Assembly: GCA_030248195.1 (NCBI GenBank)
Contig: JASAND010000589.1
Span: 32,064 to 96,063 of the forward strand
Source of the DNA: Trissonchulus latispiculum
Taxonomy: Eukaryota; Nematoda; Enoplea; Enoplida; Ironidae
Length of the DNA: 64,000 nt
Direction: 5' to 3'
A model generated the notes under the pieces. It did not search any database. It had not been told where the DNA came from and saw only the letters and a list, made by a program, of their open reading frames with translations. The translations under genes were made by a program, and so were the position numbers. Below, in pieces: positions 5,696 through 33,384 of the stretch. The number at the start of each line of letters is the position of its first letter. Position 1 is the stretch's first letter.

Positions 5696-8600
5696 ATGAT
5701 GTTCAAATTAGTCCTGATTTTGGCCGTGGTTGTGGTAGGTCTGCCAGAATAATGTTTTTAAATCGTTGTTGAATCTTATCTTTCTTCTACAATATTAAGG
5801 TCCATCGTCGCGTTTGACAGTTTGTCAGTCTACACTTTGACGTGTCGAACAAAAACTTCGAGTTGTTCTATACCTGAAGTTGGAGAACTATGCTGTAATG
5901 GAGCGGCCTGGGAGTTTAACCACAGGACCACCTCCACTACTAGGGCTGGCGCAACGTAACACAAGTACTGACTGCTAAGGAGATTTCTGCCCAGGCGACT
6001 CTATTTTATACCCAGACGAGCCTCGCCAGGGAGTGGGGGATAAGAATTTTAGGGGGCGCCGGACTGTCTAGTAGTGTTGTTTCAGTAGCCCATTTTAGTT
6101 TCAGTTTCAGTTTCAGTCGGCGGTCAGAAATAATTTCAGTTTCAGTTTCAGTCGGCGCACCAAAATAGTTTCAGTTTCAGTTTAAGTTTCAGTCGGTAAC
6201 TTAAAATAATTTCAGTTTTTCAGTTTCAGTCGGAGTTTCAGTTTTCGTTTCAGTTCACTATAAAAGGAACAGTTTACAGCCTTCTGAGTTATCATAAAGC
6301 ACAATTAAATGTTTATTCGGCTATCCCTGCAGCTATACCAACAGAATCGAAGCTAAAAACCTTCAAAATTTTAAGTTTTAAGGAAAGACTGAAACCTGTT
6401 TCAGTCCGAGTTTCAGCTTTTAAATTAGTTTCAGTTTCAGTTTCAGTCGGCAGCCTAAAAAAGTTTCAGTTTCAGGTCTCTTCCCAAAATAGTTTCAGTT
6501 TCAGTTTCAGTGACTGAAACTGAAACCTAGTTTCAGTGACTACTGTCTAGTGCCTAAAACTGGGAAGGTTGGACCAATAAACGCGCTCTGAAAGCGCCCC
6601 GGGCCAGTCCCGGAGTACCTACCTAAACTTAGAAAATTACTCAGAAATTCAAGTAAAAACAAATTTAGACAACTGACGATTTGATAAGAAGTGATTATGG
6701 AAGAACAGAAAATAATTAAACATAATTAGAAAGCAAATCACTTTGGCAAACAATGAGTATAGGGGGAGACAAAACGGGAAACAGGGGGACAGACGCTTGG
6801 CGGATAAAAGTGAGAGCGAAGGGACGGGAAGATGAGTTGAGATAATTAATGACGCGGATAAAGTTGGTTTACAATTAGAAAAAGTCAAAGGGATAGACGA
6901 GGATTTTTGGGGGGCAATCCCGAAAATAGTTCAAAATCGGACCTAACAATTTAGTCACAACCGTTCGGTCACAATGAAAACTCTCAACTGAATAACAAAT
7001 GAGTCATTAGTCAGAAAGGTGTTTCGTAGTCGTCGCGCTCAATGTTTCACAAGCCAAAGATAAGGCAATTCAGACACAGCGTTACCTTTACGATAGCTAA
7101 ACGAAAACAGTTGTTTCCGATTTGGCGAATTATTGTAAAGATAGCACCGCGTCTCCCAATTACACATTCGAAAATACCAGACACTCCAGTAAATAATTGA
7201 TTAAATAAAGGTTTTAACAGGTTTAAAGGTAATATAGCTGACGGCTGACTACCCAGCTACTAACAAGAGCACCCTGGGGGGGATGGAGGGTATGCCTAAG
7301 CTACGCTATCGAGCCTATTTTTAAACCATTCGGCCGTAATTTTTTAAAATATGACAGGGAAAAGGAAAATTTCAAAAAGAAAAACTGAAACTTGGCACGC
7401 CAAATACCCAGGACACATTCACACGACCATCACGCCCGTTGGGGTCTGTGGCAACATTCACCCGCTCATTCACATACAGTAACCCATATACACAAGTCAA
7501 TACCGGTACATTTTAACCGTATATATAAAGGGAGAAAGGAGTCAAGTAATAAAATAGCCTTCCGAAGCGTAACTGGGACCCTCTTTTTACTAAATCTTAC
7601 CCAAAATCTTGCTGAGTTACTGTTATCAGTGGGATTTGAACAATAAAATATTGGCAAAATCCTCATGCCTTAAGTTGTCGGCATTCCCTCTGCCCCTGTT
7701 GGATTTAGTCTGTACAGAAGCTTGCTCAAGCTTGGTGCTTAGCTCAGTTGATAGAGCGTCTGTACTAATCCGACACTCGGGGGTTCGTATCCCACCAGAG
7801 CATTGCTGACAGTTTCTGATGCTGTAGTGACAACATTAATTTCTCATTGTTGTCTACAGACAGTCTACATGACATGATAAAAATTTGCTGAGGCGATTTC
7901 GACTAAATGCCAAGGAGCTGGCATTTGCCTAGTTTGCTATAGCTCTCCACTAAAGCGGTGCAAAAATCCGAGTGTTGGCTAATCTACAGAACAGTGCCCT
8001 AAGCATAGATGGGACAAATAAATAATGGAAATGTGTCGTAAAACTAATAAATTAATTGAATTGAAATAAATAAATAAGTCTTTTTATCATCAGTCATTGT
8101 TGGACTATCCAAAACCAATAAATTAAATAATTAGATCCAACAATTAGATGAAAGCAGCTCACAGAAGAAACTGATGCTTAAAATGTTTTCTGGCACATTT
8201 ATGGGGGCCTACCAATTTTAAGTATTGTGACCTGACAATTTTTTTACATTTTAGGCAACCGATGCCGCACTGAGCTATTCTTCGTACTTGAACTGTATGA
8301 AACGGGCAATTAATGGTTGCAGTCAACCGTAAGTCTCCAGGTTTAATTTTTGAGGAATGAGCTTTCAAACTTGCTTCTTCTAGAAACGAATGTAAATTTA
8401 TGCACCTAACTGAGGTTCTGAGTGAAAAAGAAGTAGATTTTAGAAAAAATCCTATTATTAAATTTTTATTCCTTTGTCTTAACTGGCAAGCATTTGTTAT
8501 GCCGAAAACAAGTTTTTAAAGTTTATTTCATCTTCATTTTCTTTGGAAAAAGAAAATTTCAATAGCGCAAGGTAAGATTGGTCAGCTACCAGCATCAGTA

Positions 8601-32600: not shown

Positions 32601-33384
32601 TTTCGATCACTTTTTGCGATCACTTTTTCGCCGATTTTTCGACCATTTTCGAAACATTTTGCTCATTTTCACATAATTTGTAATCCCCATGGGCCCTCGA
32701 AACAAGACAAGAGCGTAATGAGTAACACTGCTTCCATCGTTTTCTAGAGCCCTTCAAAGCTGACAATGTTATACATAGGTAAAGCTAAATTACAAAATTT
32801 GTGGCAAAAATGTTTTGCTGTATGAAAGATACTGCGCTGCAACTTTGCACATATGCTAAGAATGTTCTAGAGTGCAGCCTACCGTTTACCTTTCTAATAG
32901 AACTGTGGGTCTAAAATACCGGCTGTGCAAATTAAAGTGAGTTAAAGTTATACTGGGCAATGCTCCAATACAGTACATCACTGAAACATGCATTGTGAAC
33001 GTTTGGATAACTAGCCTTGAGCCGCTTCTGTACCAAAATATTACCTTAGTAAAGGCTTTAATTTGGTGTATCGGCCAACCCTGTTCTAGGTCGCGTTCGG
33101 CCTACAGCATACCCTGAAGAGCTCATCACCGGAATTTTCAGGTTTTCCAGCTTCGAACCTGAATAACTTTGCCACAGCTTGATTTCGAACTCTAATATTT
33201 CGTCTTGTTTTTGAGAACATATGGGGGCATAGCGAAGTCCGTAACTATCGATGTTTGACCAAAGTAATCCCCCTTTTAACCAACTATTTAGAAACATTAT
33301 TCTTCATTGACATTGTGTCAGTTTAGTACATTCCTTCTGACTCACCACAACGACGGCCAAAATCAGGACTGACTTGAACATCAT
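26668..33384 (-). CDS. secreted cysteine-rich protein, five exons, copy 2 (unrecognised family)
   Basis: Exons (minus strand): 33346-33384, 30608-30681, 29774-29917, 29447-29563, 26668-26794 (501 nt, 166 aa). Exons 1-4 are exactly the same length as in copy 1 and all intron phases match. Signal peptide core MMFKSVLILAVVV, then SCDAALSYSSYLNC. Comparing residues by eye: exon 3 differs at 5 of 48 positions, exon 4 at 4 of 39, exon 2 at 3 of about 25. Exon 5 is similar up to YHYKCKE and then ends differently (a short Gly/Pro tail instead of a Lys/Asn-rich one). All 12 cysteines of copy 1 are kept, with one extra Cys near the signal cleavage site. Donors and acceptors are all canonical (gtgagt, gtaagt, gtacgt, gtaggt; tttcag, tgtag, ttttag, tatag). 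Intron sequences do not align with copy 1 and carry different repeats. The gene is convergent with copy 1. Confidence 0.8.
27575..27635 (-). repeat. tRNA-like SINE head
   Basis: On the minus strand, TGCGCTGGTTAAGTCATTCG (A box region) and CCCGAGTTCGATTTGCAG (B box) at tRNA spacing. Degenerate stems; a SINE or tRNA pseudogene inside intron 4 of gene copy 2. Confidence 0.5.
27735..27958. repeat. (GT)n microsatellite
   Basis: About 224 nt of GT with scattered GC and GG interruptions between 27772 and 27808, and a pure run afterwards. All poly(CV) ORFs here are artefacts. Confidence 0.98.
28655..28920. repeat. dispersed repeat, copy B
   Basis: Second copy of the repeat at 9470-9790, same plus-strand orientation, with substitutions. 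Non-coding, in intron 4 of gene copy 2. Confidence 0.6.
28940..29222. repeat. dispersed repeat related to 11994-12422
   Basis: Aligns in pieces to the 3' half of the 11994-12422 repeat, but with frame-disrupting differences. Because it sits 3' of exon 4 here and 5' of exon 4 in copy 1, in opposite orientation relative to the gene, it was not inherited with the gene duplication. Confidence 0.5.
29350..29427 (-). repeat. tRNA-like SINE head
   Basis: On the minus strand, GCCTTGCCGAGTGGTAGGAT (A box) and GGTGGTTCGATCTCCAC (B box and T arm) at tRNA spacing, ending 20 nt short of the exon 4 donor of gene copy 2. The tail continues to about 29240. Confidence 0.55.
30017..30086. repeat. (TA)n microsatellite
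   Basis: About 35 TA units in intron 2 of gene copy 2. Confidence 0.97.
30340..30415. mobile_element. right-end fragment of the CAAGAGTAC MITE family
   Basis: GAGAGCCTGCCAGTTGTC and GTGTACTCTTGG match the right terminus of the family. The left end is absent. A similar diverged end occurs near 9040-9100. Confidence 0.45.
30872..30930. repeat. (TTTTA)n pentanucleotide repeat
   Basis: TTATTTTATTTTATTTTATTT-type array, partly degenerate. Confidence 0.9.
31170..31999. mobile_element. MITE with TIRs CAAGAGTACATAATAG, disrupted by a nested insertion
   Basis: Starts CAAGAGTACATAATAGATAA and ends with the inverse TTATCTATTATGTACTCTTG. The subterminal GAGTGTGACAGCTGGCAGG is repeated inversely at the right. 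Flanks TTGTCAC / TTCTCAC suggest a 7-bp target duplication with one mismatch. The interior holds G and C runs and inverted ACGCAATTGCG/TACCTAGTGGAC motifs. In intron 1 of gene copy 2. Confidence 0.7.
31193..31570. mobile_element. 378-bp element nested in the MITE, 8-bp target duplication
   Basis: GATAAGAG occurs directly before (31185-31192) and after (31571-31578) this segment. The ends CATAGGATAACGTGGGG and CCCCGTGTTAATGTATG are inverted-repeat-like. The interior repeats GGGTAGACCCCCT/CAGCGA units. An 8-bp duplication fits hAT-type transposition. Confidence 0.65.
32040..32105 (-). repeat. tRNA-like SINE head
   Basis: Minus strand: CGTTGGTAGAGCGTCGGA (A box) and GCGTTCAAGTCCCACC (B box). 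Similar in type to the head at 7735-7803. In intron 1 of gene copy 2. Confidence 0.55.
32555..33279. mobile_element. TTAA-type MITE-like element, decayed copy
   Basis: Contains GCTCATTTTCACATAATTTG, CCCCATGGGCCCTCGAAACA and CAAGACA as in copy E2, same orientation, and ends ATCCCCCTTTTAA at 33279. The left TTAA terminus is lost or diverged. In intron 1 of gene copy 2, close to exon 1. Confidence 0.55.

What the first reader, a model, noticed from the sequence alone, without database searches (positions are those of the whole stretch)
5696..33384. A convergent pair of undescribed five-exon genes for small secreted cysteine-rich proteins
Seen directly: two genes (5696-13613 + and 33384-26668 -) with identical exon lengths for exons 1-4 (39, 74, 144, 117 nt), identical phases and canonical splice sites. 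The signal peptides are alike and 12 cysteines align. Introns are unalignable and carry different repeats. Conserved frames inside non-conserved introns argue for functional coding. I cannot place the protein in any family I know, so it may be a lineage-specific secreted family (structural, defence, toxin-like or signalling).
Basis: partly seen in the sequence, partly recalled or inferred. Interest (0 to 1): 0.88.

Follow-up and report, generated by a model that had tools for sequence, protein, structure and literature searches.

The report
Nematode twelve-cysteine secreted protein family
Two genes in this roundworm genome belong to a family of about fifteen gene loci, unmatched in the searches made here, whose best-resolved members share one exon layout and one spacing of twelve cysteines; their proteins are predicted to be secreted and likely work outside the cell, perhaps in defence.

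Summary
In detail: two intact five-exon genes converge (5696-13613 +, 33384-26668 -), with exons 1-4 of 39/74/144/117 nt, canonical splice sites and phases 0,2,2,2. Purifying selection is clear (dN 0.049, dS 0.40), and both genes are intact on what looks like a second haplotype, 90-98% identical. They are not an isolated pair: 22 contigs of the 734-Mb assembly, theirs included, carry family exons, roughly 15 loci once likely haplotypes are merged. Models of paralogues at 30-39% identity keep the exon plan, and 5 of 5 mature sequences tested keep the Cys spacing 7-3-20(22)-17-8-23-1(2)-6-5-12-14; some other members are partial or irregular. The genome is a nematode's: 150 cuticle-collagen matches (all scored), and a mitochondrial insert whose named animal relatives are nematodes and one nematomorph. 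No credible Pfam, solved-structure or database-protein match was found. DUF19, the nematode family I recall as 12-Cys, matches other contigs. AlphaFold gives two confident helices for exon 3 alone. Most likely these are small, helical, disulfide-stapled proteins acting outside the cell in binding or defence. The family is close to certain; its function is inferred. A new family of a familiar kind.

The parts
5696..5734 (+). gene A exon 1 (39 nt; hydrophobic signal-peptide-like start)
   Evidence: ATG, GT donor; signal peptide judged by eye, no predictor run
8255..8328 (+). gene A exon 2 (74 nt, Cys1-Cys2)
9236..9379 (+). gene A exon 3 (144 nt, Cys3-Cys5)
   Evidence: AlphaFold fragment
12529..12645 (+). 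gene A exon 4 (117 nt, Cys6-Cys9)
13481..13613 (+). gene A exon 5 with stop codon (133 nt, Cys10-Cys12 and tail)
   Evidence: AlphaFold fragment (low confidence)
33346..33384 (-). gene B exon 1 (39 nt)
30608..30681 (-). gene B exon 2 (74 nt)
29774..29917 (-). gene B exon 3 (144 nt)
29447..29563 (-). gene B exon 4 (117 nt)
26668..26794 (-). gene B exon 5 with stop codon (127 nt)
5466..5695 (+). gene A proximal promoter, conserved with gene B; TATA-like TATATAAA at 5637-5644
   Evidence: 80.6% over the 273-bp block that runs to 5736; TATA read by eye
33385..33616 (-). gene B proximal promoter, conserved with gene A; TATA-like TATTTAAG at 33443-33436
   Evidence: TATA read by eye
9614..12306 (.). 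2.7-kb stretch of gene A intron 3 without counterpart on contig C19769 (likely other haplotype)
   Evidence: alignment jumps from 9613 to 12307

Best explanation
The window holds two five-exon genes of a nematode gene family of about fifteen loci whose best-resolved members share one exon plan and one twelve-cysteine spacing, and their products are predicted to be secreted, would fold as small helical proteins likely held by six disulfides, and likely act outside the cell as binding or defence proteins. Shown: the exon structure, the family, the cysteine spacing in the members tested, the purifying selection, and intact copies on two contigs that look like two haplotypes. Predicted: secretion (hydrophobic start read by eye) and helices (AlphaFold on exon 3 alone, confident; on exon 5 alone, weak). 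Inferred: that the twelve cysteines pair into six disulfides, since they are kept at fixed spacing in a protein that would pass through the oxidising secretory route. Inferred: that A and B are expressed alike, since their promoters are conserved more than most of their intron sequence. Inferred, weakest: binding or defence at an epithelial or cuticle surface, by analogy with other multi-copy secreted nematode families, of which a C. elegans survey lists 14 of 51 DUF19 genes and 11 of 18 small DB genes as upregulated on infection.
For: Gene structure and selection: (A against B dN 0.049, dS 0.40); both genes intact on C19769 with all splice sites; A/A2 dN 0.025, dS 0.154; B/B2 dN 0.008, dS 0.051; promoter conserved. 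Family: (20 contigs at E<0.01 in at least one search; two more, C19541 and C8452, by splice pattern); exon 2 is 74 nt, exon 3 is 144 nt (150 in one), exon 4 is 117 or 120 nt (87 in one); 30-39% identity to A for five paralogues; 17 invariant columns, 10 of them Cys; spacing 7-3-20(22)-17-8-23-1(2)-6-5-12-14 in 5 of 5 mature sequences tested. Chance control. Nematode origin: (150 Col_cuticle_N matches over cut-off, 150 scored of 285 candidates). Helices: exon 3 fragment, 13 sequences, pLDDT 88.5, pTM 0.52, helices 2-11 and 16-43; exon 5 fragment, pLDDT 63.5, helix 8-25. No credible known family. Analogy: PMC3534327, one passage.
Against: No transcript or protein evidence was available. No signal-peptide predictor was run. 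The full spliced protein was not folded; exon 5 alone gave a weak model. Pairing of the cysteines is untested. Nothing in the sequence names a ligand, a tissue or a target. A and B evolve under purifying selection, with no sign of the fast change often seen in defence or effector proteins. Paralogues differ in net charge (about +6 for A and B, -7 for C10719), so one shared activity is not assured. Members that break the plan: C15250 lacks one residue before the last Cys; C19541 has a short exon 4; exon 3 of C20024 and exon 4 of C2818 depart from the pattern and were not recovered by the scan; exon 5 of C3336 and exon 4 of C16607 hold stop codons; C12719 has no recognisable exon 3 in the 10 kb fetched; no exon 1 candidate was found for C11694.
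Confidence: 0.42

Rival explanations
1. The family is made of proteins secreted towards a host or prey (gland or surface effectors), if this worm is a parasite or predator.
For: A multi-copy, divergent, small, secreted, cysteine-rich family is the usual look of such proteins. The assembly resembles that of the insect parasite Mermis nigrescens in size and heterozygosity (714 Mb Flye assembly, 6.6%; PMC10989877, passages and section 14), but this does not identify the species.
Against: The species and its way of life are unknown here. The named nematodes are, as I recall their classification, chromadoreans; no mermithid is listed. A/B and A/A2, B/B2 dN/dS are low (0.12-0.16, NG86). No expression data.
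Confidence: 0.22
2. A structural component of cuticle, eggshell or extracellular matrix, cross-linked through its cysteines.
For: Cysteine-rich with a signal-like start, many copies, low dN/dS, and glycine-rich C-terminal tails in one subfamily.
Against: No repeats or chitin-binding match were seen; an even number of Cys at fixed spacing looks like internal pairing. The one matrix family tested by name, CPG4, does not match, and its 3 matches in this genome, all below cut-off, lie on other contigs.
Confidence: 0.2
3. A very divergent branch of a known nematode family such as DUF19 (T20D4.11-like), which I recall as about 130 aa with 12 conserved cysteines.
For: Same phylum, size class and, as recalled, number of cysteines.
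Against: No PF01579 match for the two proteins, the eight members in A1 or the five sequences at E up to 10 (HMMER filters drop most weak matches). PF01579 scores above its cut-off at C19050 and C14394 (E 0.002 and 0.008), not at any family locus.
Confidence: 0.15
4. Pseudogenes or chance frames.
For: Some relatives do carry stop codons or irregular exons (C16607, C3336, C20024, C2818).
Against: dN/dS about 0.12 for A/B, all splice sites kept on two contigs, zero hits in the exon-3 and exon-4 controls.
Confidence: 0.02

Closest known systems
DUF19 / T20D4.11-like domain (Pfam PF01579)
   Same: Nematode, secreted, similar size; 12 cysteines as recalled; many gene copies (51 genes, 42 with signal peptide, 140-220 aa in C. 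elegans; PMC3534327, passage)
   Different: No profile match; in this genome PF01579 matches lie at other loci
CPG4 chondroitin proteoglycan domain (PF15481)
   Same: Nematode, extracellular, cysteine-bearing (recalled)
   Different: No profile match to the family; its 3 weak matches lie on other contigs
Insect odorant-binding proteins (PBP/GOBP)
   Same: Small, secreted, helical and disulfide-stapled; C-x3-C and C-x8-C pairs recall the OBP pattern (recalled)
   Different: Twelve cysteines, other spacings, nematode; no Pfam match
GDNF-receptor alpha (GAS1-like) domain
   Same: Helical, many disulfides, a C-x-C motif followed by another Cys (recalled)
   Different: Spacing differs (recalled); no Pfam match

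Membership tests
DUF19 / T20D4.11-like (PF01579) | matches the family profile | tested here: not met
   no match at E up to 10 in 2, 8 and 5 sequences (HMMER filters drop most weak matches); PF01579 matches lie at C19050, C14394, C17075, C4463
DUF19 / T20D4.11-like (PF01579) | 12 conserved cysteines at the family's own spacing (number recalled) | tested here: inconclusive
   12 Cys found in 5 of 5 mature sequences, but no DUF19 alignment was at hand to compare the spacing
CPG4 (PF15481) | matches the family profile | tested here: not met
   none; 3 weak matches on other contigs, none over the cut-off
Odorant-binding proteins (PBP/GOBP) | profile match | tested here: not met
   no match
GDNF/GAS1 domain | profile match | tested here: not met
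   no match
Secreted small cysteine-rich protein (general kind) | N-terminal signal peptide | tested here: inconclusive
   hydrophobic 13-14-residue exon 1 in A and B and candidates in C4372b, C10719, C19541, C8452 and C12719; none found for C11694; no predictor run
Secreted small cysteine-rich protein (general kind) | even number of conserved cysteines at fixed spacing | tested here: met
   12 in 5 of 5 mature sequences
Secreted small cysteine-rich protein (general kind) | disulfides formed, protein found outside the cell | not testable with these tools
   needs protein work

The most novel reading that the evidence does not exclude
A nematode-lineage protein family with its own six-disulfide helical fold, built from an exon-per-module plan (phase-2 introns between modules of two to four cysteines), that arose in large-genome nematodes and radiated, perhaps repeatedly as inverted convergent pairs, into an extracellular defence or signalling repertoire.
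Probability: 0.25. Interest if true: 0.55.

Novelty: new variant of a known kind. Interest (0 to 1): 0.38.

Why it matters
Large-genome nematodes outside the well-studied branches are thinly annotated, and small multi-exon secreted proteins with long introns are what gene finders tend to miss (general knowledge). A family with a fixed twelve-cysteine signature and a fixed exon plan gives a direct handle for finding such genes in related worms, for asking what they do outside the cell, and, if the worm is a parasite, for asking how it meets its host.

Tried and rejected
Species identification: a paper search for the assembly size found nothing; a search for the contig count returned 19 papers, 18 listed, none of which I judged from the listing to fit. 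An 18S pattern search found no match, and the Rfam SSU search failed twice. Phylum was reached through a mitochondrial insert and cuticle collagens. Three more listings led to Mermis nigrescens, whose figures are similar, not equal (passages, section 14). Against a mermithid: the named nematodes are, as I recall their classification, chromadoreans. The species is left open.

PMC8021180, from the listing, looked relevant for DUF19, but its matches were DUF1943 and the like in the passages shown. PMC13195034, PMC10879605 and PMC11603191 were seen as passages only and gave no identification. Novelty searches in print: 0 papers; 1 paper, plant snakins; 1 paper, unrelated. They cover open-access papers only.

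Weak Pfam matches (Tad3, TPR_Edg1, XRCC4, CENP-I and others) were rejected as chance: those shown with a curated cut-off are below it, none of the 13 families is shared by more than 3 of 8 members, and the best E-value is 0.0013 (TPR_Edg1, 3 of 8 members). Weak PDB profile matches (4, E 0.44-1.1: ribosomal eS17 and antibody chains) were rejected as well.

Gene conversion between A and B around exon 3 was considered: third-position differences are 5 of 48 in exon 3 against 19 of 63 in exons 2 and 4 (uncorrected p 0.019). This is suggestive only. In the same call's tree the placement of long-branch members is unsure. No Rfam family reached its threshold in the window.
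Full report
WHAT WAS CHECKED. Gene A gives 168 aa and gene B 166 aa, both open from ATG to stop. All eight introns begin with GT and end with AG. Exons 1-4 have the same lengths (39, 74, 144, 117 nt) and phases (0, 2, 2, 2). The genes converge, with 13 kb between their stop codons. Over exons 1-4 the copies differ at 8, 4 and 26 first, second and third codon positions; dN 0.049 and dS 0.40 (NG86), or 0.054 and 0.283 (YN00).

SECOND HAPLOTYPE. Contig C19769 of the same assembly carries the same pair in the same order. 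The main aligned blocks are 89.6-97.6% identical, introns included, interrupted by insertions or deletions: window 9614-12306 and about 13,689-15,228 have no counterpart there. Both genes are intact there with all splice sites. dN/dS between the contigs is about 0.16 for A (0.025/0.154) and 0.15 for B (0.008/0.051). I read C19769 as the other haplotype of a highly heterozygous animal; a recent large duplication is not excluded.

A FAMILY, NOT A PAIR. Six-frame searches of the assembly with A, with the C10719 member and with the C11694 member gave 50, 53 and 34 matches (thresholds E 10, 1, 1). Twenty contigs, C395 and C19769 included, reach E<0.01 in at least one search. Two more (C19541, C8452) are added because they carry the splice pattern for exons 2 and 3. 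Five contig pairs look like haplotypes by DNA identity: C395/C19769; C19541/C8452 (95-96%), C927/C4682 (97%), C3336/C7697 (94% over 1.4 kb) and, less surely, C15250/C7704 (81-90%). C4372/C18460 look like a sixth from parallel match lists. That leaves about 16 contig-level loci, one of them (C16607) a likely pseudogene; C395, C4372 and probably C2550 hold two genes. The count is rough: several contigs rest on a single exon match, and the search tool calls its counts lower bounds.

INCOMPLETE AND IRREGULAR MEMBERS. No exon 3 was recognised for C12719 in the 10 kb fetched, nor exon 2 for C15250 in 7.5 kb. Exon 4 of C16607 and exon 5 of C3336 hold stop codons. Exon 3 of C20024 and exon 4 of C2818 depart from the pattern. 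Not every member is therefore shown to be a working gene.

ONE EXON PLAN. A scan for AG-open frame-GT pieces with the right phase and cysteines recovered exon 2 as 74 nt at the family loci where it was found (in some an inner AG also allows 65 nt), exon 3 as 144 nt (150 at C4372b; in some a later GT also allows a longer piece), and exon 4 as 117 or 120 nt. The exon-2 pattern is loose and also gave stray hits elsewhere. C19541 has an 87-nt exon 4 (counted). C15250 and C7704 use a GC donor after exon 3. The patterns for exons 3 and 4 gave no hit in 98,650 background bases on both strands, nor in 1.5 Mb of simulated sequence. Exon 1 candidates of 39 or 42 nt with a hydrophobic reading lie upstream in C4372b, C10719, C19541, C8452 and C12719; none was found for C11694.

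CYSTEINE SIGNATURE. Eight sequences were aligned: A, B, A2, two models with exon 1 (C4372b, C10719), two from exon 2 on (C4372a, C11694) and one from exon 3 on (C15250). The five paralogues are 30-39% identical to A. Seventeen columns are invariant, ten of them cysteines; the first two cysteines lie in the part that C15250 lacks. Mature A, B, C4372b, C10719 and C11694 each have 12 Cys at 7-3-20(22)-17-8-23-1(2)-6-5-12-14. C15250 lacks one residue before the last Cys. Net charge runs from about +6 to -7, so the scaffold is kept while the surface changes.

ORGANISM. G000 is unnamed, 733.8 Mb in 21,732 contigs. A mitochondrial insert on C17523 reads best with AAA=Lys, AGR=Ser and ATA=Met, the invertebrate mitochondrial code, judged by eye at conserved cox1 sites. 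Its cytochrome b matched 114 proteins at E<=1e-20; the named animal ones in the list are nematodes, with one nematomorph (Chordodes), and some named ones are bacterial. The nematode cuticle collagen domain PF01484 gave 150 matches over the cut-off, the 150 that were scored out of 285 candidates, haplotypes not merged. So it is a nematode. Species, clade and lifestyle remain unknown.

WHAT IS IT RELATED TO. No credible relative was found: Pfam, PDB sequences by phmmer and by profile, and 5.8 billion proteins by single sequence and by alignment (56 and 5,146 candidates, none at E<=10 and E<=1). One search shows that this database includes UniRef and nr. Its reach is limited to relatives sharing five-residue words. 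PF01579 (DUF19), the nearest known kind that I could think of, matches other loci in this genome (above cut-off at two), as does CPG4, weakly.

FOLD. Exon 3 gives two helices with pLDDT 88.5; exon 5 gives one long helix at low confidence, 63.5. Exon 4 was not folded. Together with the fixed cysteines this suggests a helical, disulfide-stapled domain, but the whole fold and the pairing are untested.

HOW IT MOST LIKELY WORKS. Secretion is predicted from exon 1. Twelve conserved cysteines would pair on the way out. A helical core would hold variable surfaces. Conserved promoters, both with TATA-like boxes, suggest that A and B are expressed together. In C. elegans, large secreted families of unknown function include many infection-induced genes: DUF19 14 of 51, small DB proteins 11 of 18, DUF148 9 of 32 (PMC3534327, passage). 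By that analogy binding or defence outside the cell is my first choice, at modest confidence; a host-directed secretion and a matrix component follow.

VERDICT. A real, constrained, apparently undescribed nematode gene family. The kind (small secreted cysteine-rich multi-copy proteins) is familiar; the family and its signature look new within the limits of the searches named.

Noticed in passing
L019 and L020 (C2550:16592-19744 and 6395-9544): Two near-identical exon-3 copies of the family lie about 10 kb apart in opposite, convergent orientation, 94.6% identical over 1.7 kb: another inverted pair, or an assembly palindrome.
   Followed up: partly
window 9614-12306: A 2.7-kb stretch of gene A intron 3 has no counterpart on contig C19769; it holds tRNA-like sequence near 11,270-11,335 (by eye; ARAGORN found no tRNA in the window).
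   Followed up: partly
window 38101-42374, minus strand: Overlapping long open frames, one with a weak zinc-knuckle match below cut-off: probably a retroelement gag region.
   Followed up: no
window 60896-61267 and 61892-62437, minus strand: Open frames without Pfam match at E 0.1 that remind me, from memory only, of Polinton/Maverick-type proteins.
   Followed up: no
L035 (C17523:24001-33900), about 1791-7607: A roughly 6-kb nuclear insert of mitochondrial DNA, frame-shifted in cox1; order read as nad3, cob (reverse), nad2, cox1, nad1, cox2 (cox1 and cob, the rest by eye).
   Followed up: partly
C16607:17436-18290 (L013, L048): A family relative with stop codons inside its exon 4, apparently a pseudogene.
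   Followed up: no
L027 (C3336), exon 5: Exon 5 of this member holds an in-frame stop after the second Cys: decayed copy or sequence error; no letters were changed.
   Followed up: no
L052 and L053 (C15250, C7704), exon 3 donor: Exon 3 ends at a GC donor (GCAAGC) in both contigs, an exception to GT-AG in the family.
   Followed up: no
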